This document shows, in pieces, positions 1 through 33,177 of a stretch of 46,191 nucleotides of DNA. The DNA comes from Phycisphaerae bacterium (GTDB lineage: Bacteria; Planctomycetota; Phycisphaerae; Sedimentisphaerales; Anaerobacaceae), in assembly GCA_028715705.1 (NCBI GenBank), contig JAQURJ010000006.1, forward strand, positions 1 to 46,191, read 5' to 3'. Every line of letters begins with the position of its first letter. Within the stretch, counting starts at the first letter, position 1. The position numbers and the translations under genes were made by a program. The notes beneath the pieces are model-generated. The model saw nothing but the letters and a program-made list of their open reading frames with translations, was not told the DNA's origin and made no database searches.

Positions 1-111
1 CGAGTCACTTGGACGTTTACGAGTGCCGAAAAACCGAAATTTTGAAATATTGTGTTCAAAAATTTACTCAAAAAATGTTAACTGAAGTTTTGAGCCTCAA
101 AAATCAAATTA

Positions 112-7171: not shown

Positions 7172-8164
7172 TCACGATTGCAAGACAGCAGGAATTTGCC
7201 GATAATTGCCCTGCTTTTTCCAGATATCCAGAATAAGCTCGTACCGTTTAAGAGGCATACCCGTATAAATACAGTTACTCGTTGAAAAAATGTAACCACC
7301 TCCCGGCATACCGTGCTTTAAAGCATAAGCAGCCGATTCAATAACTTCTTCGTCGGTGCCGGTATCCATTAAGCCGCAGTTGACATTTCCTATTAGGCAG
7401 AGTTTATCGCCGACCAATCGCTTGATTTCAGCGATATCAATTCCGCCCTGAGGGTCGAGACTGTGCAGCGCATGAGGACCGGCCGAAACAAGCGAATCGA
7501 GAATAGGCATAATGTTGCCGTCAGTATGCTTTATAGTATAAAAGCCCATCTGGCGATAGCCGGCAATCAGATTAGTCAAATACGGAGTAACAAATTCGTC
7601 GAACATCGCAGGAGAAAGGAAAGGGCCGCTGTTAAAGCAATAATCACTGCAAAGGGCAAAGCCGTCCAATACGGCGTTTTTTCTAAAAAATTCCGCCCTT
7701 TTTAATGCTTTATCGACAGCAGCTTGTGCCTTATCCTTAAATTGTTGCGGATTATCGGCAAGTTCACTGACAAAATTCATTATCTTATCGCCATTGGGCA
7801 GACCGCAGGTAATGTCCCCTTCTATCATCAAAAAATATTCCATTCCGGAAACTCTGCGGATTTCTTCCAGTGCATGCATAATACCCTGGTCGGAATTGTT
7901 ATCAGTCCAGCCTTTCGGTGAATGAAAGAAAATCGCCGAGTGTTCATACTTTTGCGCGGTAACTACATACAGGCTCGCAATGTCGCGTATATGGAGCTTA
8001 CGTTCATTCAGGGACATCTGGTTCCACTGTTTATAAAATCGATGAGATGGATGAACACGCCCAAAAGCCTCCATAGTCAGAAAAAACACGAGCTCAAAAT
8101 GAGGTACGCGACCTGAAGGCTGTCCGCCCTTGAGAGCCAAAATAAATTTTTCCCTTGGTTTCAT
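7172..8164 (-). CDS. URO-D superfamily protein, not HemE (paralogue 2)
   Basis: The 330-residue protein begins MKPREKFILALKGGQPSGRVPHFEL, a typical URO-D-family start. FLSPAMFDEFVTPYLTNLI and FYTIKHTDGNIMPILDSLV follow, with His213 and Asp215. LHSLDPQGGIDIAEIKRLVGD comes next, then IGNVNCGLM with Cys263. His-x-Asp plus a later Cys fits the zinc site layout of the MtaA-like branch more than HemE, and no MRQAGR-type motif is present. A modest ribosome site (TTTAGGT, 8 nt before ATG) precedes it. It sits 59 bp after the large glycosidase gene and 19 bp before the GH36 gene on the same strand. The substrate is unknown. Confidence 0.8.
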   Translation of the reverse strand: MKPREKFILALKGGQPSGRVPHFELVFFLTMEAFGRVHPSHRFYKQWNQMSLNERKLHIRDIASLYVVTAQKYEHSAIFFHSPKGWTDNNSDQGIMHALEEIRRVSGMEYFLMIEGDITCGLPNGDKIMNFVSELADNPQQFKDKAQAAVDKALKRAEFFRKNAVLDGFALCSDYCFNSGPFLSPAMFDEFVTPYLTNLIAGYRQMGFYTIKHTDGNIMPILDSLVSAGPHALHSLDPQGGIDIAEIKRLVGDKLCLIGNVNCGLMDTGTDEEVIESAAYALKHGMPGGGYIFSTSNCIYTGMPLKRYELILDIWKKQGNYRQIPAVLQS

Positions 8165-8223: not shown

Positions 8224-11200
8224 TTAAAGTTGCTGCTGACAATGCTCAACAGCCGGGTCTGTACAATCAAGCCATTGGCTTGCCAAAATCGCAATATCAA
8301 GCATATTTGTATAACAATCCTTGTTAATATCTCCCGCTGGATAACCAAAATCACCACAACCACCTTCTGATGATGAGGATAAGACTTTTATATCGTCCCA
8401 GTAGCAGTAAGATGCGTTGCTTGCCGACGCACAAAAGAGTTTATCTAGTGATACGGGCGATGCATAGAAAGGCTGGTTAATCAGCAGACCCTGCCAGTTC
8501 GAATCGCCGGTTACTCTCACCCGTGCGTCAAAAGTCCGATTCTGGTAGTTTAAAGTTATCTCAAATTCATACCAAGTTCCATCCTGCAAACCGTTTATCA
8601 GCGTTACATTACCGCCTGAAGTTCGGACATATATTGAATTGGCATCTGCGTCCATCACTACTTCAGTGGCTTTATTACCGGCGGAATCCTGAATGGACAT
8701 ATATCCGTTCCGACTTCCGGAAGTAGGGTCTTTAAGATGCATGCCATACCACCTAACGGTATAGATACTGTTGTTGCCGCCACTACCAAAAACCAGTTTT
8801 GCATATTTACTGCCGCCTGCAGAGCCGTAAGTTCTCCCGCATTGAGTGCCGGCATAAACATTAACATTCGTAACCGCGACCTGATAATCGCTGGCATAAC
8901 CATCATCGGTCCACTGGATACCGGACGCTATATCCGGATCGTCACCATTGGCCCAGCCGCCAACAGGCCAGGTCCCGCTGCCGGCACTGCCCGCCTCGAA
9001 TGTCGTATTAACTTTCTTATTCTGATAAACCGTCTGATTGAGCGGGGTATATAACTTTATATCATAGTACTCTGTTCCTATGCACTCCGCCTGGGAGCCG
9101 GGTTTAGATAAAAACCGGAGTTCATGATTTATTCCGGCTGTTGGCGGCAGCACGACATAACGGACAAATTCGCTGTCCATCATTGAATCATCAGTTGCGA
9201 TATCAACCAAAGTTGTTATGATGTTGCCGTCAATGACCACCTGTTGAATTGATTTACGCAATGACAATCCACCTTCCCCATTGTAATAGGCCTGACATCC
9301 GAGTGGAACAAAATTAATAACAAGCATTCCGCCCTGACTTAAGTCTCCTCGGAACTTCACTTTCAAAGTCGGTAATATCCATGGCGATATGATTTCAGGC
9401 AAATCCTCGCCATAATCGAGGTCGGTGGTATATTCGCTGCCCTGCCATTTTGTTTTCAATCTATCGAAAGTATCAGGCCATAACTGGTTCTCTGTAAAAG
9501 GCGAGTTTCGGGCATAACCGATTTTTACAACCGGATTTTCAGCCTTCCACAGCAAATATGGATAGTTCTGCGTCCGGGTCGGCTCCATCACAAGACGGCT
9601 GTAAGCCGTTTTGGACTGCTGGTCAACACCAACCATCTGACCGAAATGATAGTAGCTTGAAGAAACGGTTTTATTACCATAATCCCAAGTTGCACCAAAA
9701 CCTTTGAAGTAGTTATCAAATCTGGGATGCAGCTGGTTCATCAGGGCGACATACTGTTCGGCATCCGGCATGGCCAAATTGACATAAGAAACGGCTGTAT
9801 CACGATAGGTGGAATTGCCAGTGTTCTGATAGAGGTTATTGTAAATGACCGCATAGTGATAATTCTTGTAAAACTTCGTCAAGGCCAGTGTTGCTTTTGC
9901 CATTGTCTGAAATCTTTCAAGGTCGCTATTGCCCGGCAAAAGCAATGCAGCTTGTTCAAGATTCTGGTTGGCGTCAGCGGCTATATTGATTTCGTTTGTA
10001 AGAGCAAATTGTGAAAGAACCGACGAAAGTGTCGATGTACTTACATTTTGTACGGCACTGGTCTGGGTTAAAACACAAGCCCTATTGTAGTAATAGATGC
10101 TTCGGCCTTTAACAAAATCCATCATTTGATACCAGTTGCTGTAATATTCATTAATTCTGGTGAATGCATCGGTAATTTTGTAAGTATCATCCAAGGCCGC
10201 AGCAACATAAGAATTGGCATCTGCCCCAAACTTGCCGGTAGCCCATTTTATCAGAAAATCATTGGGATCGAAACCATAAGGGTCCCATGCGATTTTTGAT
10301 GATGCCAGCCTGCTCGGCTCGTAAAGCGGCTCCGATTCAAGGATGCCATCACAGGGGCCCTGGCCATTTACCCCATAGCTCGATACAAGGGTCATCGCCC
10401 TTGTTTTTAATTTTGGCGCCGTGTAACAAAGCTGTGCAACACAAGGCTGGCTCATATTGGGATGATACAGATGCCAGCCAAAGGTCTCCATCCGAGGCAT
10501 ATTGATCAAGGACGTAAAGTGGTCCTGCCATAGGTAATCATTACCGGGAGGAACCGTTACCTTTGACCAGAAACGAACGTCTTGCGGAAGGAGACCGGCC
10601 AGAGACGCGAATTCACTGCTCGAACCTAAACCGTGGTCTATAATAATCCACGGACGCAAATAAACTCTGGGAACATCTGATTCATCTGTATATACAATGT
10701 TCGGGTCCAGCCCAACCCCTTGCAACATAGCCTTTCTTACTAAAAGCACATATTCCACAAGCCTGCTTTTATAGGACTGAGATTCACAATCCGTGCAGCC
10801 GCATGAGTAAATACTTTGGTCACCCTCGCCGATGTTCAAAAGAATGCCGGCTATATCATTCACATTGGTGAAAAGCCTCTTGACTTTATTAAATAACAAA
10901 TCTTTGCCGGCCTGTTTTGACGGACACATAAACGGATGATACCATGCGGTTTGACGCGTAGGCGCAACTTCCGGATGTGCGGTGATGAAAGCGTCTCTCG
11001 CCCACAGGGGCAATGACGGCTGGTATGTGAACAGATATATCTTTGTGCCATAACCTGCGGCATCGGATATTTCGCTTTTCAGGTCATTGCGGTTATCCAC
11101 TACCTGGTTGAGATAGTTTTGCTTGAACGCTGCATCTACATCATTGAAAACCTCATTGTTGTCTTCATAATAATTAAAAAGATATGTAGGGCTTGAGCTT

Positions 11201-12927
11201 TCGACTGCCCAGAAATGATCAAAATTTGCACGCTTATCGATGAGGCCCTGTCGAACAGAAAGGACAGGACGGTCTGCAATGTCAAAGGTTTGATTCAAAG
11301 CATCTTCGCCTTCCAGTAAAATTCTGTCCCGCAATTCCATCAGCCCATACAGAACACCTACTTCAGTAGCAGCAGTAACCAGAATACTGTTTGCATCGAT
11401 ATTCTTAATATAAAAACCCTGTTCGCCGACCCAGTTTGCATTGAAAGACAAACCAGCTTGTGTAATCAGCGAAGCAATATTGGGATCGTTATATCTGCCA
11501 GCATAAATAAATTTAGGATTTGGAATAACAACCTTTATATTGTCCCAATAGCCGTAATCCCAGTCATACCAAAAACGGCATTTTACTCTGTCGAGTGAAT
11601 AAGACGAACTGCTGTAAAAATCTTTGTTTGTTACAGTTACAGCCCAGTTCGGCTGACCGGCTAATCTTGCTTTTATGTCAAACTTTTTAGTTATATAGTT
11701 CAATACCACCTCAAATTCATACCAGGCGTTAACAGAAAAGTTATTAATCAAAGTTACCGCTGCCCCGGCACTTCCATAAGTGATTAGTCCTGTTTGATTG
11801 TTCATTCTCACATATGTGGAGATATTTTGTGAATCGTCCATCGCGTAAGTATAATGGCTGCAAATAGTGTTTAAATTCGTGCCGTATTTGGCGAACCACG
11901 TCATTTTATGGCGAGCATCATTTGTTCCACTGCCGAAATCGAGTAAAGTCTCGCCATAAGTGGAACTATTCCCCAAAACCCTGCCGCACTGAGACCCCTG
12001 AACGGCGCCGGTAGTAACAACCGTATGAGTGCCGGTTGCCGAACGCGACCATTGAACCCCGGAAGCTATATCAGGGTCGTCGCCATTGCCCCAGATTCCA
12101 TTGCCCGGCCATGTGTTTGGACCGGCGCTATTCGGTTCAAATGTTGTATCGGCTAAAGTTAATGCCACTGTTTCGCCCAGATAATGGGTATTGCCTATCT
12201 GAGAAGCAATGTCGGATATGCCTGCAAGGGTATCAGGCTCTATAAACACCTGCGATGAGCCGCCGGCCTGAAAGCCGCCTGTTATAACCAGATTATCTAT
12301 AGACAGCTTGCCGCTTGTAGTTCTTTCAAACTGCAGTTCGCCGTAAGGCTGGTCGGTCCAGTACTTGATGCGGTAATTTTCAGCTATCAGTATGTCGTCA
12401 ATGTATAAATTATAATAACGCATATCATTAGCATTTATTGATATCCGGAATTTATAAGTCTGGCCGGCGTTATAAGGCATAAGGTCCACCCGAGTGGTAT
12501 AGTGATAGGCAAATATCTGACCGTTGTCCGCAAAGCCTACGGAAGGACCTATTTTCCCTGTAATATCCATTATTTTGAAGCCGGCATATTTGTTGGTGTA
12601 CTCTACTCGGGCATCGAACTCGACCTGAAGCCACTCGCTGCCTTTGAATGTCTTTCTGACATCCGCATTACCCTCGCCATAATACAAAATAAGGGATTTA
12701 GTTCCACCAATTACATAAGTAGGGTTATTGGTAACCTCGCCGTTTGTCGTTATCACCCGCCAGCCATCCTGGCCATTAACATCACCAAAAGTAAAAGTTT
12801 CAAAATCAGTACTGTAGAGCAAAGTACGCGCATAACCAGCCGACACCGACAGCAATACCACTATAAGCAAATATATGGATGTTAATTTCATGGTTTTCAG
12901 TTCTTTTTTATATCGTTTTTGCAACAT
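8224..12927 (-). CDS. Large secreted GH67/GH20-like putative glycosidase with three lectin-like modules and a dockerin-like tail (gene A)
   Basis: About 1567 residues. The signal peptide ends near SVSAGYA. Lectin-like module type 1 (about 34-219, DFETFTFGDVNGQDGW) comes first. A GH N-terminal alpha/beta domain follows, split in two (about 227-259 and 470-536, ending LYGLMELRDRI) by a type 2 module (about 260-469, TTFEPNSAG…WYEFEVVLNY…YWDNIKVV). Next is the catalytic-like region with LLNIGEGDQSIYSCGCTDCES and METFGWHLYHPN. A second type 2 module and a C-terminal tail GDINKDCYTNMLDIAILASQW complete it. GEG and the glycine-rich context resemble the acid residue of GH67 alpha-glucuronidases, but the family is not certain. 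I chose the ATG at 12927 because AGGA lies 5 nt upstream. TTG/ATG codons at 12960-12945 lack a ribosome site, and ATG 12891 is another option. Paralogous to gene B. Confidence 0.72.
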   Translation of the reverse strand: MLQKRYKKELKTMKLTSIYLLIVVLLSVSAGYARTLLYSTDFETFTFGDVNGQDGWRVITTNGEVTNNPTYVIGGTKSLILYYGEGNADVRKTFKGSEWLQVEFDARVEYTNKYAGFKIMDITGKIGPSVGFADNGQIFAYHYTTRVDLMPYNAGQTYKFRISINANDMRYYNLYIDDILIAENYRIKYWTDQPYGELQFERTTSGKLSIDNLVITGGFQAGGSSQVFIEPDTLAGISDIASQIGNTHYLGETVALTLADTTFEPNSAGPNTWPGNGIWGNGDDPDIASGVQWSRSATGTHTVVTTGAVQGSQCGRVLGNSSTYGETLLDFGSGTNDARHKMTWFAKYGTNLNTICSHYTYAMDDSQNISTYVRMNNQTGLITYGSAGAAVTLINNFSVNAWYEFEVVLNYITKKFDIKARLAGQPNWAVTVTNKDFYSSSSYSLDRVKCRFWYDWDYGYWDNIKVVIPNPKFIYAGRYNDPNIASLITQAGLSFNANWVGEQGFYIKNIDANSILVTAATEVGVLYGLMELRDRILLEGEDALNQTFDIADRPVLSVRQGLIDKRANFDHFWAVESSSPTYLFNYYEDNNEVFNDVDAAFKQNYLNQVVDNRNDLKSEISDAAGYGTKIYLFTYQPSLPLWARDAFITAHPEVAPTRQTAWYHPFMCPSKQAGKDLLFNKVKRLFTNVNDIAGILLNIGEGDQSIYSCGCTDCESQSYKSRLVEYVLLVRKAMLQGVGLDPNIVYTDESDVPRVYLRPWIIIDHGLGSSSEFASLAGLLPQDVRFWSKVTVPPGNDYLWQDHFTSLINMPRMETFGWHLYHPNMSQPCVAQLCYTAPKLKTRAMTLVSSYGVNGQGPCDGILESEPLYEPSRLASSKIAWDPYGFDPNDFLIKWATGKFGADANSYVAAALDDTYKITDAFTRINEYYSNWYQMMDFVKGRSIYYYNRACVLTQTSAVQNVSTSTLSSVLSQFALTNEINIAADANQNLEQAALLLPGNSDLERFQTMAKATLALTKFYKNYHYAVIYNNLYQNTGNSTYRDTAVSYVNLAMPDAEQYVALMNQLHPRFDNYFKGFGATWDYGNKTVSSSYYHFGQMVGVDQQSKTAYSRLVMEPTRTQNYPYLLWKAENPVVKIGYARNSPFTENQLWPDTFDRLKTKWQGSEYTTDLDYGEDLPEIISPWILPTLKVKFRGDLSQGGMLVINFVPLGCQAYYNGEGGLSLRKSIQQVVIDGNIITTLVDIATDDSMMDSEFVRYVVLPPTAGINHELRFLSKPGSQAECIGTEYYDIKLYTPLNQTVYQNKKVNTTFEAGSAGSGTWPVGGWANGDDPDIASGIQWTDDGYASDYQVAVTNVNVYAGTQCGRTYGSAGGSKYAKLVFGSGGNNSIYTVRWYGMHLKDPTSGSRNGYMSIQDSAGNKATEVVMDADANSIYVRTSGGNVTLINGLQDGTWYEFEITLNYQNRTFDARVRVTGDSNWQGLLINQPFYASPVSLDKLFCASASNASYCYWDDIKVLSSSSEGGCGDFGYPAGDINKDCYTNMLDIAILASQWLDCTDPAVEHCQQQL

Positions 12928-15900
12928 TTCCATCCTACCTTTCATACTTATCATCGTCAAATACTAATACGCTGTAAACCATCAATCGCCTGTAAGGTGT
13001 TTCCTTGAGACGGCTTATCCCATTCATCAAAAACCGCGGCTATATTGTCAAAAGAAATGCCTTTTCCCCACTCACACTGTGCAATTAAGCCTCTGGGAGA
13101 GCCGCTAAAGGCTTTCTTTACTCTTCTGACCGCATTTCGTACATCTTCCTGTGACCCAAAGGGCAAAATATTCTGACGGTCAATTTCCCCCCAGAAAGTT
13201 ATTCTGCCGGAAAATTGCTTTCCCAACTGCTCAATATCCATACAAAATAACTGGGAATTAACGGCATCAACACCGATTTCAATTAAATCAGGAAATAAAG
13301 GCATAATAAAGCCGTCCGAATGAAAGAAAGCATACTTGCCCTTTTCGTGAAGTATATCGCAGTAATCCTTATAAAGGGGCTTAAAAAGTTCTCGCCACAT
13401 TTCCAGCGAAATAAGAAGGGATGTTTGCGAACCCCAGTCATCTAAAAAACCGACGGCATCTACATCGGTCTGCGCTAATATCCGCAATCCCCTGCAATAG
13501 AAATCGTGCACCATATCGATAAGATCGCGAACCTCTTTTGTGCCATAAGCAAAGTCTATTAAGAGCTTTTCCGTGCCGCGGAGAAATTGCATGCGTTCAA
13601 ACGGACGGACGCCTATGCCACCCTTTATAAATTTGTCCTTTATCTGCGAACAAAAATCGTTCACCTTTCCGGTGTCTGCATTATCAAGAAGCTCAAACGG
13701 CGGTTTATAATGAGCCAAATCCGACCAGTTCTCAATGATATGCTCCTTAACCTCGCCTGCAACTCCCGGCTCTGCGGAATACCACCTGCATCCCCATTCA
13801 TCAGTGTAAAAACCAACATTGCCGGGAGTGCCGCTGGCACGGGCAGACTTTCCATAAATAGTCGGAGAATTTGCAATATCTAAAGGAAACAGCCTTAACA
13901 TTTCATCCAGCCGGTCCTGGCAAAACATATTTACCCACGGCAGCGTCCACAAATCACGCGGCGCCCTGTCGACAGGTCTATGGTTTAAAGTCGCTATTAC
14001 TCGTTCACGTGAATTCATCTTTTTAATTTCATAAAAAACATATCAATATTCATATCCCCAGAGGGTAGAACCGGCAGCTTTTTCACGGTCATACGGACTT
14101 GTTGTATCAGGATTCTGTATGTATATCTTTTGAGGTACACGAGTATAAATTCTTGCTGAATATAACTCCGCTCCGGTACAGCCCGGCAAAGATTCGATGG
14201 ATAGTTCATGCACGGCTGTATCCGGCAGAACCTGTACAGGCAGCAACTGCACATAACGGATGAACTCACTGTCCTCGATAGTATCATCAGTAGCAATATC
14301 AATTAACGTCTTGACAGGCTTATCGTCCAGCGAAAGTTTTAATATTGATTTTCGCATCGACTCCTCGGACTCCGCATCACTCCTAGCTTTTCCGCCTAAA
14401 GGGACATATCGTAAAACAAGCATCGCTCCGCCGCTCAGGTCGGCCTGAAATTTAATACGCAGCTTCGGAAGTATCCAGGGCGACAGAACCGCCGGCAAAT
14501 CTTGGCTGTTGCCAGCCAAGTCCAAGACAAATTCATCGCCCTTCCACTTTCTGAGAAGCTCCGGATAAATGTTTTCCCATTTCATTTCCCAAGGCCAGGG
14601 AGCATATCGCTTGTAGCCTATCTTCTTGTGAGGATTTTGCAGTTCCAGAAGAAGATAAGGAAATTTTTCGCTGCGCAAAGACTCCATCACAATACGGTTG
14701 TACCCATTCCAGCACTGCTGGCTGACAGTAGCCAATTGGCCGAAAATATATGGAACAAATTTCGGGAAAGTATTGCCCGTCCAGCTTGTTTCAATCTTCT
14801 CAAAGTAACCGCTGAACTCTGGATGTATCTTATGCATCCAGTCGATATAAGCTTCCATATCCGGAACAGCCTTTTCGATGTGCTGAACGGCAAGTTTATG
14901 ATATGCCTGACTGCGGGCGCCAGCAGTTTCGCTGACATTATTATATATGAGAGCGAAATGATAGTTGTGATAAAATCGCGTCAGCGCCGCCGTTGCCTTG
15001 CCCATCATCCAGAACCTTTTAAGAACATTATCTTCCGGCTTAAGGGGCATCGCTTTGGTAAGATTCTTTTCTGCGTCTTCGGCTATTCTGATTTCTTCGG
15101 CAAGCCTGAATTTCGACAGCACAGTCTCAATCGTTCCTTCAGTAACATCGGCTACTTCTTTGTTCTGTTGCGCTGCCATTCCTCTACTGTAACAGTGAGT
15201 CTTTTTACCTTTAACAAAGTTCAGCATGTGAAACCAGTTGGTATTGGTCGGCAAAATTGTAAATGCGTCGGTTATCCTGTATGTATCCTTTAACGCTGCC
15301 GCCACATGCACCCCGGCCTCTTCGCCAAACCGTCGCTGTGCCCATTTCAGAAGAAATTCGTTAGAATCGAAACGGTACGGGTTCCACGCAATTTTAAGGC
15401 CGGCAAGACGGCTCGGCTCATATAAAAGATCATTATCATCGTCCGGACTTTGGCACTGCGACTGTCCCTTCAATCCGAGAGCCGCCAGCTTTACAGCACG
15501 GGCTTTAAGTTTAGGGGCTGTGTAGCATAATTGCGCTACGCAGGGCTGATTCATATTCGGATGGTATATATGCCAGCCGAAAGTCTCCATACGAGGCATT
15601 TTTATGTATGGATTGAATTGGTCGTTCCAGAGATAGTCGCCTCCCGGAGGAACTGTTATTTTCGACCAGAAGCGAATGTCTTCCGGCAACTTGCCGGACA
15701 GAACCGTAAATTTCTTACTGTCGCCATCGAAACCGTGATCGACAATCTGCCAGGGACGAAGATAGATTATGGCATCCGGCGTACTTTCATGAATTGCCTT
15801 GCGGATGAGCATAAGATACTCGATAAGCCTCTGTTCATAGGGCTGAGATTCGCATTTTTGGCATCCGCAGGAAAATATTGACTGCCATCCTTCGCCGAAA

Positions 15901-16389
15901 CACAATACCAAACCGTTAATACCGGAAACATCTCTGAAGAGATCCCTCATTTTCATATACAGTAAATCTTTGCTGACCTGATTCGAAGGACAGATAAACG
16001 GATGCCATTCTTTTTCCTGACGGGCAAATTTCACTTCCGGATGAGCGGCGATAAAATTTTCGTGCATCTTGGGCGGCAATGTCGGCTGAAACATGAACAA
16101 GTATGTCTTCGCACCATAAGCCTGTGCATCTGAAATAGCCCGTTTCAATTTCTCACGGTTAGCCTTTACTTTTTCAATATACTGTCTGCGAAAAACCTCA
16201 TCGTTGCCGAATATCTCCGGTGAATCTTCATACGAATATAGGGGAGTAGTACGCTCGTCAGCCCAGAAAGTTGTAAAATTCGCTCTTCTTTTGACATCGC
16301 CTATTCGAACCTCAAAAATCGGCCGGTCTTTGTAGTCAAACTTTTCCTTCAATATTTGCTGGCCATCTTCCTCGATTCTGTCCCGAAGC
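11336..16389. repeat. 5,054-bp direct tandem duplication, copy 1
   Basis: The unit runs from inside gene A, through the URO-D gene, to inside the gene for the chimeric glycosidase. It repeats with an exact offset of 5,054 bp in copy 2 (16390-21443). All stretches and encoded proteins I compared were identical. It begins with TCCATCAG (11336-11343). Confidence 0.93.
12957..14018 (-). CDS. URO-D superfamily protein, not HemE (paralogue 3, copy 1)
   Basis: The 353-residue protein starts MNSRERVIATLNHRPVDRAPRDLW, the typical opening of uncharacterised URO-D proteins. It has DDWGSQTSLLISLEMWRELFKPLYKDY and YAFFHSDGFIMPLFPDLIEIGVDAVN, with His233 and Asp235. GRITFWGEIDRQNILPFGSQEDVRNAV follows. 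The HemE Arg motif is absent, and the later Cys of methyltransferase relatives is replaced (GEIDRQ). It lies inside the tandem duplication and is identical in sequence to the copy at 18011-19072. Spacing is 24 bp from the upstream glycosidase stop, and it ends about 30 bp before the chosen start of gene A, so all are likely on one transcript. Function unknown. Confidence 0.82.
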   Translation of the reverse strand: MNSRERVIATLNHRPVDRAPRDLWTLPWVNMFCQDRLDEMLRLFPLDIANSPTIYGKSARASGTPGNVGFYTDEWGCRWYSAEPGVAGEVKEHIIENWSDLAHYKPPFELLDNADTGKVNDFCSQIKDKFIKGGIGVRPFERMQFLRGTEKLLIDFAYGTKEVRDLIDMVHDFYCRGLRILAQTDVDAVGFLDDWGSQTSLLISLEMWRELFKPLYKDYCDILHEKGKYAFFHSDGFIMPLFPDLIEIGVDAVNSQLFCMDIEQLGKQFSGRITFWGEIDRQNILPFGSQEDVRNAVRRVKKAFSGSPRGLIAQCEWGKGISFDNIAAVFDEWDKPSQGNTLQAIDGLQRISI

Positions 16390-17981
16390 TCCATCAGCCC
16401 ATACAGAACACCTACTTCAGTAGCAGCAGTAACCAGAATACTGTTTGCATCGATATTCTTAATATAAAAACCCTGTTCGCCGACCCAGTTTGCATTGAAA
16501 GACAAACCAGCTTGTGTAATCAGCGAAGCAATATTGGGATCGTTATATCTGCCAGCATAAATAAATTTAGGATTTGGAATAACAACCTTTATATTGTCCC
16601 AATAGCCGTAATCCCAGTCATACCAAAAACGGCATTTTACTCTGTCGAGTGAATAAGACGAACTGCTGTAAAAATCTTTGTTTGTTACAGTTACAGCCCA
16701 GTTCGGCTGACCGGCTAATCTTGCTTTTATGTCAAACTTTTTAGTTATATAGTTCAATACCACCTCAAATTCATACCAGGCGTTAACAGAAAAGTTATTA
16801 ATCAAAGTTACCGCTGCCCCGGCACTTCCATAAGTGATTAGTCCTGTTTGATTGTTCATTCTCACATATGTGGAGATATTTTGTGAATCGTCCATCGCGT
16901 AAGTATAATGGCTGCAAATAGTGTTTAAATTCGTGCCGTATTTGGCGAACCACGTCATTTTATGGCGAGCATCATTTGTTCCACTGCCGAAATCGAGTAA
17001 AGTCTCGCCATAAGTGGAACTATTCCCCAAAACCCTGCCGCACTGAGACCCCTGAACGGCGCCGGTAGTAACAACCGTATGAGTGCCGGTTGCCGAACGC
17101 GACCATTGAACCCCGGAAGCTATATCAGGGTCGTCGCCATTGCCCCAGATTCCATTGCCCGGCCATGTGTTTGGACCGGCGCTATTCGGTTCAAATGTTG
17201 TATCGGCTAAAGTTAATGCCACTGTTTCGCCCAGATAATGGGTATTGCCTATCTGAGAAGCAATGTCGGATATGCCTGCAAGGGTATCAGGCTCTATAAA
17301 CACCTGCGATGAGCCGCCGGCCTGAAAGCCGCCTGTTATAACCAGATTATCTATAGACAGCTTGCCGCTTGTAGTTCTTTCAAACTGCAGTTCGCCGTAA
17401 GGCTGGTCGGTCCAGTACTTGATGCGGTAATTTTCAGCTATCAGTATGTCGTCAATGTATAAATTATAATAACGCATATCATTAGCATTTATTGATATCC
17501 GGAATTTATAAGTCTGGCCGGCGTTATAAGGCATAAGGTCCACCCGAGTGGTATAGTGATAGGCAAATATCTGACCGTTGTCCGCAAAGCCTACGGAAGG
17601 ACCTATTTTCCCTGTAATATCCATTATTTTGAAGCCGGCATATTTGTTGGTGTACTCTACTCGGGCATCGAACTCGACCTGAAGCCACTCGCTGCCTTTG
17701 AATGTCTTTCTGACATCCGCATTACCCTCGCCATAATACAAAATAAGGGATTTAGTTCCACCAATTACATAAGTAGGGTTATTGGTAACCTCGCCGTTTG
17801 TCGTTATCACCCGCCAGCCATCCTGGCCATTAACATCACCAAAAGTAAAAGTTTCAAAATCAGTACTGTAGAGCAAAGTACGCGCATAACCAGCCGACAC
17901 CGACAGCAATACCACTATAAGCAAATATATGGATGTTAATTTCATGGTTTTCAGTTCTTTTTTATATCGTTTTTGCAACAT
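14043..17981 (-). CDS. Chimeric putative glycosidase: N-terminus of gene A fused to catalytic part of gene B
   Basis: About 1312 residues. The first ~536 residues (signal peptide, type 1 module, split N-terminal domain with inserted type 2 module, up to MELRDRI) are identical to gene A. The rest (EEDGQQILKEKFDYKDRPIFEV to WGYEY) is identical to gene B. The switch occurs at DNA positions 16390-16397 (TCCATCAG), a sequence shared by both parents, and the frame is kept because the parents are aligned paralogues. The catalytic-like region keeps FGEGWQSIFSCGCQKCES and METFGWHIYHPN. Unlike gene A it lacks the C-terminal type 2 module and dockerin-like tail. Unlike gene B it has gene A's signal peptide, not a lipoprotein signal. 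The start follows that of gene A (ATG 17981). It could be an assembly artefact (see findings). Confidence 0.7.
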   Translation of the reverse strand: MLQKRYKKELKTMKLTSIYLLIVVLLSVSAGYARTLLYSTDFETFTFGDVNGQDGWRVITTNGEVTNNPTYVIGGTKSLILYYGEGNADVRKTFKGSEWLQVEFDARVEYTNKYAGFKIMDITGKIGPSVGFADNGQIFAYHYTTRVDLMPYNAGQTYKFRISINANDMRYYNLYIDDILIAENYRIKYWTDQPYGELQFERTTSGKLSIDNLVITGGFQAGGSSQVFIEPDTLAGISDIASQIGNTHYLGETVALTLADTTFEPNSAGPNTWPGNGIWGNGDDPDIASGVQWSRSATGTHTVVTTGAVQGSQCGRVLGNSSTYGETLLDFGSGTNDARHKMTWFAKYGTNLNTICSHYTYAMDDSQNISTYVRMNNQTGLITYGSAGAAVTLINNFSVNAWYEFEVVLNYITKKFDIKARLAGQPNWAVTVTNKDFYSSSSYSLDRVKCRFWYDWDYGYWDNIKVVIPNPKFIYAGRYNDPNIASLITQAGLSFNANWVGEQGFYIKNIDANSILVTAATEVGVLYGLMELRDRIEEDGQQILKEKFDYKDRPIFEVRIGDVKRRANFTTFWADERTTPLYSYEDSPEIFGNDEVFRRQYIEKVKANREKLKRAISDAQAYGAKTYLFMFQPTLPPKMHENFIAAHPEVKFARQEKEWHPFICPSNQVSKDLLYMKMRDLFRDVSGINGLVLCFGEGWQSIFSCGCQKCESQPYEQRLIEYLMLIRKAIHESTPDAIIYLRPWQIVDHGFDGDSKKFTVLSGKLPEDIRFWSKITVPPGGDYLWNDQFNPYIKMPRMETFGWHIYHPNMNQPCVAQLCYTAPKLKARAVKLAALGLKGQSQCQSPDDDNDLLYEPSRLAGLKIAWNPYRFDSNEFLLKWAQRRFGEEAGVHVAAALKDTYRITDAFTILPTNTNWFHMLNFVKGKKTHCYSRGMAAQQNKEVADVTEGTIETVLSKFRLAEEIRIAEDAEKNLTKAMPLKPEDNVLKRFWMMGKATAALTRFYHNYHFALIYNNVSETAGARSQAYHKLAVQHIEKAVPDMEAYIDWMHKIHPEFSGYFEKIETSWTGNTFPKFVPYIFGQLATVSQQCWNGYNRIVMESLRSEKFPYLLLELQNPHKKIGYKRYAPWPWEMKWENIYPELLRKWKGDEFVLDLAGNSQDLPAVLSPWILPKLRIKFQADLSGGAMLVLRYVPLGGKARSDAESEESMRKSILKLSLDDKPVKTLIDIATDDTIEDSEFIRYVQLLPVQVLPDTAVHELSIESLPGCTGAELYSARIYTRVPQKIYIQNPDTTSPYDREKAAGSTLWGYEY

Positions 17982-20900
17982 TTCCATCCTACCTTTCATA
18001 CTTATCATCGTCAAATACTAATACGCTGTAAACCATCAATCGCCTGTAAGGTGTTTCCTTGAGACGGCTTATCCCATTCATCAAAAACCGCGGCTATATT
18101 GTCAAAAGAAATGCCTTTTCCCCACTCACACTGTGCAATTAAGCCTCTGGGAGAGCCGCTAAAGGCTTTCTTTACTCTTCTGACCGCATTTCGTACATCT
18201 TCCTGTGACCCAAAGGGCAAAATATTCTGACGGTCAATTTCCCCCCAGAAAGTTATTCTGCCGGAAAATTGCTTTCCCAACTGCTCAATATCCATACAAA
18301 ATAACTGGGAATTAACGGCATCAACACCGATTTCAATTAAATCAGGAAATAAAGGCATAATAAAGCCGTCCGAATGAAAGAAAGCATACTTGCCCTTTTC
18401 GTGAAGTATATCGCAGTAATCCTTATAAAGGGGCTTAAAAAGTTCTCGCCACATTTCCAGCGAAATAAGAAGGGATGTTTGCGAACCCCAGTCATCTAAA
18501 AAACCGACGGCATCTACATCGGTCTGCGCTAATATCCGCAATCCCCTGCAATAGAAATCGTGCACCATATCGATAAGATCGCGAACCTCTTTTGTGCCAT
18601 AAGCAAAGTCTATTAAGAGCTTTTCCGTGCCGCGGAGAAATTGCATGCGTTCAAACGGACGGACGCCTATGCCACCCTTTATAAATTTGTCCTTTATCTG
18701 CGAACAAAAATCGTTCACCTTTCCGGTGTCTGCATTATCAAGAAGCTCAAACGGCGGTTTATAATGAGCCAAATCCGACCAGTTCTCAATGATATGCTCC
18801 TTAACCTCGCCTGCAACTCCCGGCTCTGCGGAATACCACCTGCATCCCCATTCATCAGTGTAAAAACCAACATTGCCGGGAGTGCCGCTGGCACGGGCAG
18901 ACTTTCCATAAATAGTCGGAGAATTTGCAATATCTAAAGGAAACAGCCTTAACATTTCATCCAGCCGGTCCTGGCAAAACATATTTACCCACGGCAGCGT
19001 CCACAAATCACGCGGCGCCCTGTCGACAGGTCTATGGTTTAAAGTCGCTATTACTCGTTCACGTGAATTCATCTTTTTAATTTCATAAAAAACATATCAA
19101 TATTCATATCCCCAGAGGGTAGAACCGGCAGCTTTTTCACGGTCATACGGACTTGTTGTATCAGGATTCTGTATGTATATCTTTTGAGGTACACGAGTAT
19201 AAATTCTTGCTGAATATAACTCCGCTCCGGTACAGCCCGGCAAAGATTCGATGGATAGTTCATGCACGGCTGTATCCGGCAGAACCTGTACAGGCAGCAA
19301 CTGCACATAACGGATGAACTCACTGTCCTCGATAGTATCATCAGTAGCAATATCAATTAACGTCTTGACAGGCTTATCGTCCAGCGAAAGTTTTAATATT
19401 GATTTTCGCATCGACTCCTCGGACTCCGCATCACTCCTAGCTTTTCCGCCTAAAGGGACATATCGTAAAACAAGCATCGCTCCGCCGCTCAGGTCGGCCT
19501 GAAATTTAATACGCAGCTTCGGAAGTATCCAGGGCGACAGAACCGCCGGCAAATCTTGGCTGTTGCCAGCCAAGTCCAAGACAAATTCATCGCCCTTCCA
19601 CTTTCTGAGAAGCTCCGGATAAATGTTTTCCCATTTCATTTCCCAAGGCCAGGGAGCATATCGCTTGTAGCCTATCTTCTTGTGAGGATTTTGCAGTTCC
19701 AGAAGAAGATAAGGAAATTTTTCGCTGCGCAAAGACTCCATCACAATACGGTTGTACCCATTCCAGCACTGCTGGCTGACAGTAGCCAATTGGCCGAAAA
19801 TATATGGAACAAATTTCGGGAAAGTATTGCCCGTCCAGCTTGTTTCAATCTTCTCAAAGTAACCGCTGAACTCTGGATGTATCTTATGCATCCAGTCGAT
19901 ATAAGCTTCCATATCCGGAACAGCCTTTTCGATGTGCTGAACGGCAAGTTTATGATATGCCTGACTGCGGGCGCCAGCAGTTTCGCTGACATTATTATAT
20001 ATGAGAGCGAAATGATAGTTGTGATAAAATCGCGTCAGCGCCGCCGTTGCCTTGCCCATCATCCAGAACCTTTTAAGAACATTATCTTCCGGCTTAAGGG
20101 GCATCGCTTTGGTAAGATTCTTTTCTGCGTCTTCGGCTATTCTGATTTCTTCGGCAAGCCTGAATTTCGACAGCACAGTCTCAATCGTTCCTTCAGTAAC
20201 ATCGGCTACTTCTTTGTTCTGTTGCGCTGCCATTCCTCTACTGTAACAGTGAGTCTTTTTACCTTTAACAAAGTTCAGCATGTGAAACCAGTTGGTATTG
20301 GTCGGCAAAATTGTAAATGCGTCGGTTATCCTGTATGTATCCTTTAACGCTGCCGCCACATGCACCCCGGCCTCTTCGCCAAACCGTCGCTGTGCCCATT
20401 TCAGAAGAAATTCGTTAGAATCGAAACGGTACGGGTTCCACGCAATTTTAAGGCCGGCAAGACGGCTCGGCTCATATAAAAGATCATTATCATCGTCCGG
20501 ACTTTGGCACTGCGACTGTCCCTTCAATCCGAGAGCCGCCAGCTTTACAGCACGGGCTTTAAGTTTAGGGGCTGTGTAGCATAATTGCGCTACGCAGGGC
20601 TGATTCATATTCGGATGGTATATATGCCAGCCGAAAGTCTCCATACGAGGCATTTTTATGTATGGATTGAATTGGTCGTTCCAGAGATAGTCGCCTCCCG
20701 GAGGAACTGTTATTTTCGACCAGAAGCGAATGTCTTCCGGCAACTTGCCGGACAGAACCGTAAATTTCTTACTGTCGCCATCGAAACCGTGATCGACAAT
20801 CTGCCAGGGACGAAGATAGATTATGGCATCCGGCGTACTTTCATGAATTGCCTTGCGGATGAGCATAAGATACTCGATAAGCCTCTGTTCATAGGGCTGA

Positions 20901-21443
20901 GATTCGCATTTTTGGCATCCGCAGGAAAATATTGACTGCCATCCTTCGCCGAAACACAATACCAAACCGTTAATACCGGAAACATCTCTGAAGAGATCCC
21001 TCATTTTCATATACAGTAAATCTTTGCTGACCTGATTCGAAGGACAGATAAACGGATGCCATTCTTTTTCCTGACGGGCAAATTTCACTTCCGGATGAGC
21101 GGCGATAAAATTTTCGTGCATCTTGGGCGGCAATGTCGGCTGAAACATGAACAAGTATGTCTTCGCACCATAAGCCTGTGCATCTGAAATAGCCCGTTTC
21201 AATTTCTCACGGTTAGCCTTTACTTTTTCAATATACTGTCTGCGAAAAACCTCATCGTTGCCGAATATCTCCGGTGAATCTTCATACGAATATAGGGGAG
21301 TAGTACGCTCGTCAGCCCAGAAAGTTGTAAAATTCGCTCTTCTTTTGACATCGCCTATTCGAACCTCAAAAATCGGCCGGTCTTTGTAGTCAAACTTTTC
21401 CTTCAATATTTGCTGGCCATCTTCCTCGATTCTGTCCCGAAGC
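16390..21443. repeat. 5,054-bp direct tandem duplication, copy 2
   Basis: Second copy of 11336-16389 in direct orientation with no spacer. The junction (16390-16397) reads TCCATCAG, also found at both outer ends (11336-11343 and 21444-21451), as expected for a microhomology-mediated or unequal exchange event between genes A and B. Confidence 0.93.
18011..19072 (-). CDS. URO-D superfamily protein, not HemE (paralogue 3, copy 2)
   Basis: The 353-residue protein is identical at the amino-acid level to the one at 12957-14018, and the DNA looks identical, because it lies in the second tandem copy. The same features apply: the MNSRERVIATLNHRPVDRAP start, FFHSDGF with His233 and Asp235, and no HemE signature. 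It follows gene B by 24 bp on the same strand. If the duplication is real the cell carries two doses of this enzyme. If it is an assembly error only one gene exists. Confidence 0.8.
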   Translation of the reverse strand: MNSRERVIATLNHRPVDRAPRDLWTLPWVNMFCQDRLDEMLRLFPLDIANSPTIYGKSARASGTPGNVGFYTDEWGCRWYSAEPGVAGEVKEHIIENWSDLAHYKPPFELLDNADTGKVNDFCSQIKDKFIKGGIGVRPFERMQFLRGTEKLLIDFAYGTKEVRDLIDMVHDFYCRGLRILAQTDVDAVGFLDDWGSQTSLLISLEMWRELFKPLYKDYCDILHEKGKYAFFHSDGFIMPLFPDLIEIGVDAVNSQLFCMDIEQLGKQFSGRITFWGEIDRQNILPFGSQEDVRNAVRRVKKAFSGSPRGLIAQCEWGKGISFDNIAAVFDEWDKPSQGNTLQAIDGLQRISI

Positions 21444-21814
21444 TCCATCAGGCCATAGAGAATTCCTGTGTCAGTATTTGCTGTTATCAGAATAGTGCCA
21501 TTCTCAAGAGTTTTTATATAAAAACCCTGCTTGCCGAGCTCATCCTTTTGGACTTCAAGCCGAGACGTTTCTGCAATGGGAGTGATATAACTGCTGCCAA
21601 ACCTGCCCGCAACAATGATAATATCTCCGGTTTTCCCTATACTGGCCGATTCGGCAAGGTTGTGAATGCTGCCAATCTCTGCGGCGGTCTTTTCTATTCC
21701 CTTAATTACGCCAGCTTCGATAAATACGAGAATTTCAGCCTTTGCGCATCCGGCAATAAATACCAGAGAAATAAAGACGGCAAACAGTATTTTGCTTAGT
21801 TGTTGTGCAGTCAT
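19097..21814 (-). CDS. GH67/GH20-like putative glycosidase lipoprotein (gene B)
   Basis: This 905-residue protein is a paralogue of gene A without lectin modules. The N-terminus MTAQQLSKILFAVFISLVFIAGC has a lipobox (IAGC, Cys23), so it is probably a lipoprotein. Residues 27-128 form the uninterrupted N-terminal alpha/beta domain (VFIEAGVIKGIEKTAAEIG…GILYGLMELRDRI) seen in GH67/GH20-type enzymes. The catalytic-like region contains FGEGWQSIFSCGCQKCES with Glu290 and a C-x-C-x2-C cluster (298, 300, 303), IYLRPWQIVDHG, and METFGWHIYHPN. LKIAWNPYRFDSNEFLLKWAQRRFG follows, resembling the C-terminal helical part of GH67. It starts 45 bp after the stop of the upstream GH67-like gene. An alpha-glucuronidase or hexosaminidase-type activity is a guess; the family fit is partial. 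Confidence 0.75.
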   Translation of the reverse strand: MTAQQLSKILFAVFISLVFIAGCAKAEILVFIEAGVIKGIEKTAAEIGSIHNLAESASIGKTGDIIIVAGRFGSSYITPIAETSRLEVQKDELGKQGFYIKTLENGTILITANTDTGILYGLMELRDRIEEDGQQILKEKFDYKDRPIFEVRIGDVKRRANFTTFWADERTTPLYSYEDSPEIFGNDEVFRRQYIEKVKANREKLKRAISDAQAYGAKTYLFMFQPTLPPKMHENFIAAHPEVKFARQEKEWHPFICPSNQVSKDLLYMKMRDLFRDVSGINGLVLCFGEGWQSIFSCGCQKCESQPYEQRLIEYLMLIRKAIHESTPDAIIYLRPWQIVDHGFDGDSKKFTVLSGKLPEDIRFWSKITVPPGGDYLWNDQFNPYIKMPRMETFGWHIYHPNMNQPCVAQLCYTAPKLKARAVKLAALGLKGQSQCQSPDDDNDLLYEPSRLAGLKIAWNPYRFDSNEFLLKWAQRRFGEEAGVHVAAALKDTYRITDAFTILPTNTNWFHMLNFVKGKKTHCYSRGMAAQQNKEVADVTEGTIETVLSKFRLAEEIRIAEDAEKNLTKAMPLKPEDNVLKRFWMMGKATAALTRFYHNYHFALIYNNVSETAGARSQAYHKLAVQHIEKAVPDMEAYIDWMHKIHPEFSGYFEKIETSWTGNTFPKFVPYIFGQLATVSQQCWNGYNRIVMESLRSEKFPYLLLELQNPHKKIGYKRYAPWPWEMKWENIYPELLRKWKGDEFVLDLAGNSQDLPAVLSPWILPKLRIKFQADLSGGAMLVLRYVPLGGKARSDAESEESMRKSILKLSLDDKPVKTLIDIATDDTIEDSEFIRYVQLLPVQVLPDTAVHELSIESLPGCTGAELYSARIYTRVPQKIYIQNPDTTSPYDREKAAGSTLWGYEY

Positions 21815-21859: not shown

Positions 21860-24364
21860 TTACGGTATTACTTTATGGATATAATTTTTTGGATAAGTCG
21901 TACCTTTACTGAGTTCAACGCGGCTGAGATAATCGGACTGATTAATAAACCATGCATTGCCTGAAACGTCAAAGCATACATCTTCAGCCAAACCAACATC
22001 CTTCGGGTGGAATTTCAGTCCAAGGTGCCAATCGTCAACCGAAATTATACGGGTTTTGCCTGGAGTTTGGTCAGGAAGCGGTTCAATGCCGTACTTTCGC
22101 AGTTTAAATACGCCCTCATCAAAAGGAGGACTGCTGTAAGATTCAACGGCATAGAGATACCCTTTGTAAAAAGTCATACCTCTGATTTTCTTTTCCGTTA
22201 CCTCCGGCCGAGGCTCTTTAAAAGAAGGCACTGCCGCAAATGCCGCTATTTGACCATTAGCGTCAAGCTGAACGATACTGCGAAGATTATTGTCGCCAAT
22301 GAACAGTGAACCATTATTAACATCATACGAAACAGCATCAGGCTGAGTTATCTCAGCAGGCAGCTTTCTCCATATTACAGGAGCGGCAGTGTCAAAATCA
22401 GTACCCATTTGATATACAGCATCTTTCGAGCAAATTAAAAGCCTGCCCTGACCGTCGTCGGTCAATGCGCGAGCATCAAAGGCAAGCTCTTTACTTACAG
22501 CAAGCTCTTCTCCCTTAAAAGATATTTTATATATTTTGTTATCGGTGAGAATATAGAGATTATTTCCGACACAGGCGATTCCTTTTGGAGGACAAGAAAG
22601 CGGGCCTATCTTTTCAGCAACTATCTCGGGGAAAATGCGTGCGGGCTTGCCAGAGCGTTCAGCTTTTACGACGGTCTGCAATTCCCTAACGACATGCATA
22701 TAGCTCTGGCTTTCCGTTTTACCTTTTTTGGCAAGAAAGTCGCCGGGCGACTCATACAACTCAACACCGCGTTTGACCAGTTTTTCGATTGCATCGACCT
22801 GTGCATTTCTTTCCGCACCCTGCAGACCGAGGAGATAACAATAACGAAGCGTTCCAACCATGCAAACCTTTTTGGCCTCAGCGTACTTTTTATAACCAAC
22901 CAGGTCGTCGTGAATACTTTTGTAGTCGTCCGGTTTGAACTTTTCTTTGTTCTTCTCCAGAATCTCAATCATCTTGTCGCAAAGAGCTAGCGTTTTATTC
23001 AGGGCGGACTCCCATTCGCTAACCATACCCTTCGTTACATCGGGGTATCTCATCGAATAGTTGGGAACAGCGGCGTGTCCGACCTCTAATACGATTTCAA
23101 GGGGAGAATACTGCCATAACGGCCCGGCTCGCAAATAGGTGGAATGCGACGGCCCTATCGCTTCACGCATCACGTCATAGGAAATCGTCAGGATATCCGC
23201 CAGAGGTTCGGCGGTTTGGACTCCATAATTTTCCGTTGCCCAGTCAATATATATCCGGCGAGGGTCCTTAAACGGGTCATTAGCCAATGCATAATAAGTA
23301 TAAGCGTTGAGATGATTCCACGGCGACCAAAGGAGAGGCTCGTCACGTCCCCATGACGCTGCTACCCATTCAAGCGGTTTGTGATTTTTGAACCCGCCTG
23401 TGGTTTTTTCCGCTTCCATAATATCCTTAACAAGCGAAAAAAGCCCCACGACTCCCGGCTCCGGGATGCCGGCCAGTTCTCTGAAACGAGCAGACCATTC
23501 ATGAGCCATTCCACAGGGATACCAGCCAAAACCACGATATTCACAAACTGTTACATCAAATGAAACTATTTGCGGATGCCCGCCAACGTTACCAATTAAT
23601 GCATCAGTGGGCAGGCCTATATAGCTGTCACCAAACTGTTCTTTTGAAATGATATAAATATTCTTGATATCTTCCTTATCTGTTGTCAAAGGAAAATACT
23701 CTTTTACACGGGCAATGTCAGATGGGTTAGAAAGCCATGAACGGAGCATAAGAATACGATTCTTACCATCCTCATCATTCGCCTGCTTTATTCCTGCCCA
23801 TACGGCTTTCGCGTAAGCCCTGAATTCCTCCGGATTGCCGGCAGATATGTGCGCTTCAGTTAAAGTTATCATATAGCCATCGAGCCATGGCATCAATTTT
23901 ATCATTTCATAAAGCTTGTTCTTTAAAAACCACGTTCGTTTTTCCAACGTGTTAAGAAACTCTTTTTTGATGCCTCCGGAAAGGTTAATCTCGTAATTGT
24001 GCGGTACAATTTTCACCCCCTTTGCCTGCAACTGTTTGGCTATTTCGTGAATCCTAAGGCGGTTCTGCTCAGCCTCCTGACGGCATTTCTGGCGATCCTC
24101 AAACGCCTCGTCCGGCAGAAATTCGTAGTTATTCAAATTTTCATTGCGCCACGTAAGTGTTTGCCAAAAGGTGCAGCCGCTTTCCGGAATCGCCGGCGGA
24201 TAAGCGAAATTCGTATCTATCCTTACCTTTGAAAAATAAGCTTTTTTGGCGGAACACGCCTCTGAAGTCTTAATCTGTGCCGAGCTTGAATTGTCCTCGA
24301 AAGCAAAAACAGCGATGTTCAAAAAAACTATTACAACAAAGAAATTTCTTTGGCTGCTGCGCAT
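21860..24364 (-). CDS. GH67-like protein with C-terminal beta-propeller
   Basis: The 834-residue secreted protein has a signal peptide (MRSSQRNFFVVIVFLNIAVFAFE). Residues about 40-440 look like a GH67 alpha-glucuronidase barrel. DGYMITLTEAH (Glu170) could match the acid residue. SFDVTVCEYRGFGW (Glu275) resembles the GH67 QITQEYLG motif with a catalytic Glu, and YIDWATENYG resembles the C-terminal helical region. Residues about 590-834 contain repeated blades (GIACVGNNLYILTDNKIYKI, ALTDDGQGRLLICSKDAVY, SLFIGDNNLRSIVQL), suggesting an NHL-type propeller for binding. An AAGG-like ribosome site precedes the start. It heads the glycosidase/URO-D run. Removal of uronic acid from a glycan is plausible but not shown. 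Confidence 0.68.
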   Translation of the reverse strand: MRSSQRNFFVVIVFLNIAVFAFEDNSSSAQIKTSEACSAKKAYFSKVRIDTNFAYPPAIPESGCTFWQTLTWRNENLNNYEFLPDEAFEDRQKCRQEAEQNRLRIHEIAKQLQAKGVKIVPHNYEINLSGGIKKEFLNTLEKRTWFLKNKLYEMIKLMPWLDGYMITLTEAHISAGNPEEFRAYAKAVWAGIKQANDEDGKNRILMLRSWLSNPSDIARVKEYFPLTTDKEDIKNIYIISKEQFGDSYIGLPTDALIGNVGGHPQIVSFDVTVCEYRGFGWYPCGMAHEWSARFRELAGIPEPGVVGLFSLVKDIMEAEKTTGGFKNHKPLEWVAASWGRDEPLLWSPWNHLNAYTYYALANDPFKDPRRIYIDWATENYGVQTAEPLADILTISYDVMREAIGPSHSTYLRAGPLWQYSPLEIVLEVGHAAVPNYSMRYPDVTKGMVSEWESALNKTLALCDKMIEILEKNKEKFKPDDYKSIHDDLVGYKKYAEAKKVCMVGTLRYCYLLGLQGAERNAQVDAIEKLVKRGVELYESPGDFLAKKGKTESQSYMHVVRELQTVVKAERSGKPARIFPEIVAEKIGPLSCPPKGIACVGNNLYILTDNKIYKISFKGEELAVSKELAFDARALTDDGQGRLLICSKDAVYQMGTDFDTAAPVIWRKLPAEITQPDAVSYDVNNGSLFIGDNNLRSIVQLDANGQIAAFAAVPSFKEPRPEVTEKKIRGMTFYKGYLYAVESYSSPPFDEGVFKLRKYGIEPLPDQTPGKTRIISVDDWHLGLKFHPKDVGLAEDVCFDVSGNAWFINQSDYLSRVELSKGTTYPKNYIHKVIP

Positions 24365-26076: not shown

Positions 26077-26209
26077 CTTCTCAATCCTCCAAAATAAATT
26101 TTTCTCTACTTGAACCTACACAACTTTATCAAAATCAGGTAAATAACCTGTCAATTTTTATCAGCCAATCAGCTTATTAAATTTTAACAATCTTCCCACG
26201 GCAGCTTTC

Positions 26210-30157: not shown

Positions 30158-30253
30158 CAAGTCCGGCAAATCAATCTCAAAATAAAGAATTGGCGATTTG
30201 TATAACTGTATATTGTGTTAAGATTACATATTTTTTAATCGAGAGGAAAAACT

Positions 30254-32164: not shown

Positions 32165-32168
32165 AAGA

Positions 32169-33137: not shown

Positions 33138-33177
33138 AGACACTTAACAAAATTTATATAAATTTCAGGCAAACGGT

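What the first reader, a model, noticed from the sequence alone, without database searches (positions are those of the whole stretch)
14043..17981. In-frame hybrid glycosidase made by fusing paralogues A and B
The crossover lies at the codons for MELRDRI, a position shared by both parents, so the frame and fold are kept. The hybrid gives gene B's catalytic part the secretion signal and two lectin-like modules of gene A in place of its lipoprotein anchor. It is a natural example of changing localisation and binding without touching the catalytic region.
Basis: partly seen in the sequence, partly recalled or inferred. Interest (0 to 1): 0.68.

Follow-up and report, generated by a model that had tools for sequence, protein, structure and literature searches.

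The report
Hybrid sugar-cutting enzyme from tandem duplication
A bacterium's assembled genome holds a third, in-frame enzyme gene made when a 5-kilobase stretch was copied in tandem with its ends inside two related sugar-cutting enzyme genes, a known way of making new genes, caught here very young and not yet shown to be expressed.

Summary
A 5,054-bp segment is tandemly repeated with no difference: 11336-16397 equals 16390-21451, 5,062 bp each with 8 bp shared. One end lies inside gene A, the other inside its paralogue B. A single duplication of A-X-B therefore leaves both parents whole, doubles the URO-D-like gene X, and creates an in-frame A/B hybrid between them (an 'anti-Lepore' arrangement). 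The crossover is the 8 nt CTGATGGA (Leu-Met-Glu), in register, at the end of a GH67N-like domain.

The hybrid swaps B's lipoprotein-like N-terminus for A's signal and two lectin modules, but also swaps B's own GH67N-like domain (40% identical) and lacks A's third lectin and tail. In-frame by itself is weak evidence: 114 of 236 exact A/B matches of 8 nt or more are in frame.

No hybrid was seen in the two relatives carrying the family. The assembly looks short-read, so the joint is probably real but the copy number is unknown. Expression and localisation are untested. The enzyme family is unsettled (weak GH115/GH138-like fold match). Known kind of event; modest interest.

The parts
8224..12960 (-). 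Parent gene A: 1,578-aa secreted-type glycosidase-like protein (signal-like N-terminus, lectin module 1, GH67N-like domain with lectin module 2 inserted, catalytic part, third lectin-like module, C-terminal tail)
12957..14018 (-). X1, URO-D-like gene (353 aa), identical copy of X2
14043..18014 (-). Hybrid H: A codons up to Leu540-Glu542, B codons after; ATG at 17981 or in-frame TTG at 18014
16390..16397 (-). Crossover interval, 8 nt CTGATGGA identical in A and B
18011..19072 (-). X2, URO-D-like gene (353 aa)
19097..21814 (-). Parent gene B: 905-aa protein with lipobox-like N-terminus and GH67N match
11336..16397 (.). Repeat copy 1 (A N-part, X1, H/B C-part)
16390..21451 (.). Repeat copy 2 (A/H N-part, X2, B C-part), 100% identical to copy 1
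21860..24364 (-). 834-aa gene of unknown family, 45 bp upstream of B, same strand (possibly in the same operon)

Best explanation
The ancestral order on the minus strand was B - X - A. A recent unequal exchange, between sister copies or at a broken fork, joined A to B at an in-register 8-nt identity inside the homologous 'LYGLMELRDRI' helix codons. It gave B - X - H - X - A: a 5,054-bp tandem duplication whose joint is an in-frame hybrid. Shown by sequence: the repeat, the joint, the open frame, both parents intact. Inferred: the event was single and recent, and the joint is physically present in the sampled cells. The hybrid starts 29 bp after X2 in a same-strand array with short gaps, so it is probably transcribed with it. 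If made, it should be an exported, lectin-bearing form of B's enzyme instead of a lipid-anchored one. That last step is inference only.
For: Exact 5,062-bp repeat with both ends inside the paralogues. Both parents and X are whole. The joint sequence occurs once in the genome. The joint is in register and lies in one of the more similar stretches of A/B (73% over 60 nt against 57% overall). Helix 299-316 of the model of H residues 235-1323 carries the joint. In trees of 15 family members H's N-domain groups with A and its catalytic part with B, and none of the other 14 moves between the A-type and B-type groups. A relative, G050, has A-type and B-type genes side by side without a hybrid. Precedent seen in passages: 9-bp border microhomology used to direct tandem duplication in E. 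coli (PMC11111574).
Against: There are no reads, so the joint and copy number cannot be checked. Zero differences over 5 kb is what a false duplication would also show. This contig's left end stops in a ~125-nt repeat shared with the ends of other contigs, as in short-read assemblies, and such assemblies do not reliably count 5-kb tandem copies. No relative with X between A and B was found, so the B-X-A ancestor is inferred.
Confidence: 0.8

Rival explanations
1. The tandem layout is an assembly product: a loop in the assembly graph caused by something other than a fixed duplication (an excised circle carrying the same joint, a minority of cells, a library chimera) was written out as two copies.
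For: Perfect identity of the copies; signs of a short-read assembly: largest contig 69 kb of 186, a contig end in a ~125-nt repeat. PMC12607827 says tandem duplications are difficult to detect with short-read assembly (passages).
Against: The joint shares only 8 nt between A and B, far below any assembler word length I know of, so reads with the joint must have existed. No other exact repeat over 155 bp in a 428,703-bp sample, so duplicated output is not a habit of this assembly.
Confidence: 0.13
2. The duplication is real but the hybrid is a by-product: what was kept, if anything, is a higher dose of X or of B's catalytic part, or the duplication is transient and neutral.
For: X is doubled whole; about half of all 8-nt exact matches would be in frame anyway (114 of 236); zero substitutions leave no time for selection to show. 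Short duplications can persist without selection: ~4,300 and ~7,100 generations to 50% loss for 3.3 and 2.6 kb in P. aeruginosa (PMC12607827, passages).
Against: In-register joint that keeps the domain boundary (29 of 236 matches) and an intact 1,323-aa frame; neither is decisive. This rival concerns what the hybrid is for and is compatible with the best explanation of how it arose.
Confidence: 0.45
3. The duplication is old and has been kept identical by gene conversion between the copies.
For: Conversion between direct repeats is expected on general grounds.
Against: No difference anywhere in 5,062 bp including gaps between genes; identity stops sharply at the joint. Recent origin is simpler.
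Confidence: 0.07

Closest known systems
Anti-Lepore-type hybrid genes and CYP11B1/CYP11B2 hybrids (recalled)
   Same: Unequal exchange between neighbouring paralogues gives a third, hybrid gene between two intact parents
   Different: Bacterial gene array, much more diverged parents (57% nt identity), with an unrelated gene duplicated whole along with the joint
Chimeric genes from tandem duplication, e.g. Drosophila (PMC5460883, listing and start of abstract; PMC4838838, abstract and introduction) and maize p1/p2 hybrids (PMC2686159, passages)
   Same: Duplication or recombination breakpoints inside paralogues create a chimera
   Different: There eukaryotic genes with introns; here an uninterrupted reading frame and a protein domain boundary
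Short-joint tandem duplications and amplifications in bacteria and phage (PMC11111574, PMC12607827, PMC9391042, passages)
   Same: Tandem repeats; joints in short matching sequence in PMC11111574 and PMC9391042
   Different: Those passages describe dose or marker changes; I saw no hybrid enzyme in them
GH115, GH138, GH67, GH84 glycosidases
   Same: Foldseek matches of the models: GH115 E 1.2e-14, GH138 1.9e-10; GH115 7.4e-14, GH84 1.0e-9
   Different: TM-scores only about 0.2-0.37, no Pfam catalytic match; family of the catalytic part not settled

Membership tests
Tandem-duplication hybrid gene (anti-Lepore type) | Both parents intact and flanking the hybrid | tested here: met
Tandem-duplication hybrid gene (anti-Lepore type) | Repeat ends coincide with the hybrid joint | tested here: met
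   Copies 11336-16397 and 16390-21451 overlap only at the joint
Tandem-duplication hybrid gene (anti-Lepore type) | Relatives keep the unduplicated order | tested here: inconclusive
   G050 has A-type and B-type genes adjacent without hybrid, but also without X between; no other genome of the genus was listed
Tandem-duplication hybrid gene (anti-Lepore type) | Joint and copy number supported by reads | not testable with these tools
   No reads held
GH67 alpha-glucuronidase | Pfam GH67 N-terminal domain (PF03648) | tested here: met
   B: 24.7 bits, cut-off 24.3, marginal; not listed for A or H at E 0.01
GH67 alpha-glucuronidase | Pfam match in the catalytic part | tested here: not met
   No catalytic Pfam family for A, H or B at E 0.01
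GH115 | Pfam match to a GH115 model | tested here: not met
   None at E 0.01
GH115 | Fold | tested here: inconclusive
   Best Foldseek rows for both models, but TM about 0.2-0.28 and mean pLDDT 63 and 69
GH138 / alpha-D-galacturonidase NF049878 | NCBIfam cut-off 1300 bits | tested here: not met
   28.1 bits for B, 19.8 for H; that NF049878 is GH138 is recalled
URO-D family (X1, X2) | PF01208 above cut-off | tested here: met
   55.3 bits, cut-off 23.9
MtaA/CmuA methyltransferase (X1, X2) | TIGR01463 above cut-off | tested here: not met
   37.8 bits, cut-off 235.4
Bacterial lipoprotein (B) | Signal peptide with lipobox | tested here: inconclusive
   LVFIAGC read by eye against a recalled motif; 3 of 5 B-type N-termini have such a Cys

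The most novel reading that the evidence does not exclude
A live, probably copy-number-variable array B-X-(H-X)n-A in which the joint itself makes a working enzyme of a not yet classified GH115/GH138-like family: one mutation has at once raised the dose of X and of B's catalytic part and moved that part from a lipid anchor to an exported lectin-bearing form.
Probability: 0.15. Interest if true: 0.55.

Novelty: new member of a known kind. Interest (0 to 1): 0.35.

Why it matters
If the joint is confirmed in reads, it is a very young natural domain swap between diverged bacterial paralogues, with parents and product side by side, so parent and hybrid proteins can be compared directly. It also shows how a short tandem duplication can make a new multidomain enzyme while leaving the old ones in place.

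Tried and rejected
Considered and rejected: a frameshift or chance similarity (5,062 identical bases). An assembly join by sequence similarity alone (only 8 nt shared at the joint; longest in-register A/B run 14 nt, elsewhere). The hybrid as the ancestor of A and B: A-type and B-type lineages both exist in G050, a B-type member exists in G241, and H is identical to each parent on its side.

Led nowhere: the first genome-contig scan with B found no relative. No match to B in plasmids. The paper search for the isolate name SMBSF gave one unrelated paper; a search joining glycoside hydrolase, URO-D and planctomycetes gave nothing used. Searches that could have shown a bacterial glycosidase hybrid made by tandem duplication listed none that I recognised from titles and abstract starts; this is no proof of absence. 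The anti-Lepore search gave no useful new paper. VIA-align was filled by the inserted lectin domain and tested little else. Gene 21860-24364 found no relative in G050 or G241. Promoter and terminator scans gave 27 against 21.1 (sd 4.3) and 11 against 10.5 (sd 2.7) in shuffles, so neither helped.

Full report
OBSERVATION. All genes concerned lie on the minus strand: B 19097-21814 (905 aa), X2 18011-19072 (353 aa), H 14043-18014 (1,323 aa), X1 12957-14018 (353 aa), A 8224-12960 (1,578 aa). Compared with itself at an offset of 5,054, the window is identical from 11336 to 16397 without one difference and unlike on both sides, apart from short paralogous similarity next to the ends. H equals A for its first 1,625 nt and B for its last 2,355 nt; the overlap is the 8 nt CTGATGGA at 16390-16397. 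The unit is therefore [A N-part, X, B C-part], present twice head to tail, and H is the joint. The joint sequence occurs once in the genome, and X occurs in the own genome only as these two copies plus one distant relative.

HOW IT AROSE. B-X-A with one exchange between A and B on two sister copies gives exactly B-X-H-X-A. A and B are 57% identical in 2,676 aligned nt, 73% in the 60 nt near the joint; the longest in-register run is 14 nt and lies elsewhere. Of 236 maximal exact A/B matches of 8 nt or more, 114 are in frame and 29 in register. An in-frame product is thus not surprising; an in-register one is less likely by microhomology alone (29 of 236, 12%) and fits pairing of the homologous genes. 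Precedents: 9-bp microhomology borders directing tandem duplication in E. coli (PMC11111574, passages) and T4 segmental amplifications attributed to short homologous sequences (PMC9391042, passages). With 0 differences in 5,062 bp the 95% upper bound is about 0.0006 per site: recent, or converted.

WHAT THE HYBRID IS. Alignment of family members (A3 was used for the model) shows that B-type proteins run: N-terminus, GH67N-like domain, catalytic part. A-type proteins have a further module before the GH67N-like domain, and most have a second, lectin-like one inserted inside it. In the model of H residues 235-1323 (mean pLDDT 68.8) the insert is a beta-sandwich, model residues about 67-255, and the joint lies in helix 299-316 at the end of the N-terminal domain. 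VIA-align gives the insert Z 17.3, rmsd 3.0 over 169 residues, to a part of sialidase BT_1020; lectin module 1 has Pfam PF22585. H thus has A's signal-like N-terminus, lectin modules 1 and 2 and GH67N-like domain, and B's whole catalytic part and C-terminus. Over the GH67N-like domain A and B are 40% identical, over the catalytic part 50%. H lacks A's third module, A residues 1318-1527, which is 39.5% identical to H 271-478, and A's tail, which looks dockerin-like to me (recalled motif; no Pfam match). B's N-terminus LVFIAGC resembles a lipobox (recalled motif, read by eye).

ENZYME FAMILY. No Pfam catalytic match for A, H or B. NCBIfam's alpha-D-galacturonidase model matches B at 28.1 bits against a cut-off of 1300. 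The PDB sequence search gave one weak match, a putative O-GlcNAcase, E 4.8e-5. Foldseek ranks a GH115 alpha-glucuronidase first for each model, with GH138 and GH84 chains below and low TM-scores. A GH115/GH138-like architecture is the best lead, not a classification. X belongs to the URO-D family but falls below the MtaA/CmuA cut-off.

RELATIVES. At E 1e-20, relatives of B were found in 2 of 161 genomes of the order (own genome and G050), and relatives of the A1 alignment in 3 of 397 of the class (own, G050, G241). At a looser E 0.001, 10 of 60 relatives match some part of H, most of them weakly. In trees of 15 members (4 from the own genome, 10 from G050, 1 from G241; the partial G241 copy was left out) H's N-domain is with A and its catalytic part with B; none of the other 14 switches between the A-type and B-type groups. 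No relative has X between A and B in what I read, so the immediate ancestor is inferred.

IS IT REAL. The genome has 186 contigs, the largest 69 kb. The left end of this contig is a ~125-nt repeat also found at the start of C131, at the end of C118, near the start of C77, in C83 and, at 92%, in C32. This looks like a short-read assembly stopped by short repeats (inference). Such an assembly can pass a tandem repeat only by walking a loop, so the number of units is not reliable. But a loop needs reads that hold the joint, because 8 shared nt cannot join two graph paths (inference from how such assemblers work). In 428,703 bp of this genome (the window, 19 stretches of 20 kb and one small contig, partly N) no other exact repeat exceeds 155 bp. 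I put about 0.8 on a real tandem duplication in the sampled cells.

STABILITY. In P. aeruginosa, engineered duplications of 2.6 and 3.3 kb were lost at about 1e-4 per generation, one of 17.8 kb at 9e-4, and all could amplify (PMC12607827, passages). A 5-kb duplication could therefore persist for thousands of generations without selection; its presence does not prove benefit.

NOVELTY. Hybrid genes at tandem-duplication joints are well known (Closest known systems). New here is the instance: diverged bacterial glycosidase-like paralogues, a joint at a domain boundary, and a change in predicted export and binding. Searches are my literature searches on this; I do not claim that no similar bacterial case is in print.

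Noticed in passing
window 25369-27535: Older partial tandem duplication of a lectin module: 25463-25762 and 26352-26651 are 93% identical at offset 889. A 235-aa protein with PEP-CTERM sits beside a 441-aa two-module protein; modules resemble those of A, so modules may have been shuffled in this locus before.
   Followed up: partly
window 7172-8164, 12957-14018 and 18011-19072: URO-D/MtaA-CmuA-like genes follow A, H and B. With a weak GH115-like (4-O-methyl-glucuronidase) fold match nearby this hints at handling of an O-methylated sugar. No B12-binding match was listed for the 25 window proteins scanned; five contigs of the genome hold one over the cut-off.
   Followed up: partly
window 1-125: The contig starts inside a ~125-nt repeat shared with the start of C131 and the end of C118 and found in C77, C83 and (92%) C32: a small interspersed repeat family of this genome.
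   Followed up: no
G050 (L031, L033, L035-L037, L039): One 2.4-Mb relative carries ten members of this otherwise rare family in several clusters, with varied module orders.
   Followed up: partly
window 29099-35967: Neighbouring cluster on the other strand: LacI-type regulator, sodium:solute symporter, HAD hydrolase, GH38 alpha-mannosidase.
   Followed up: no
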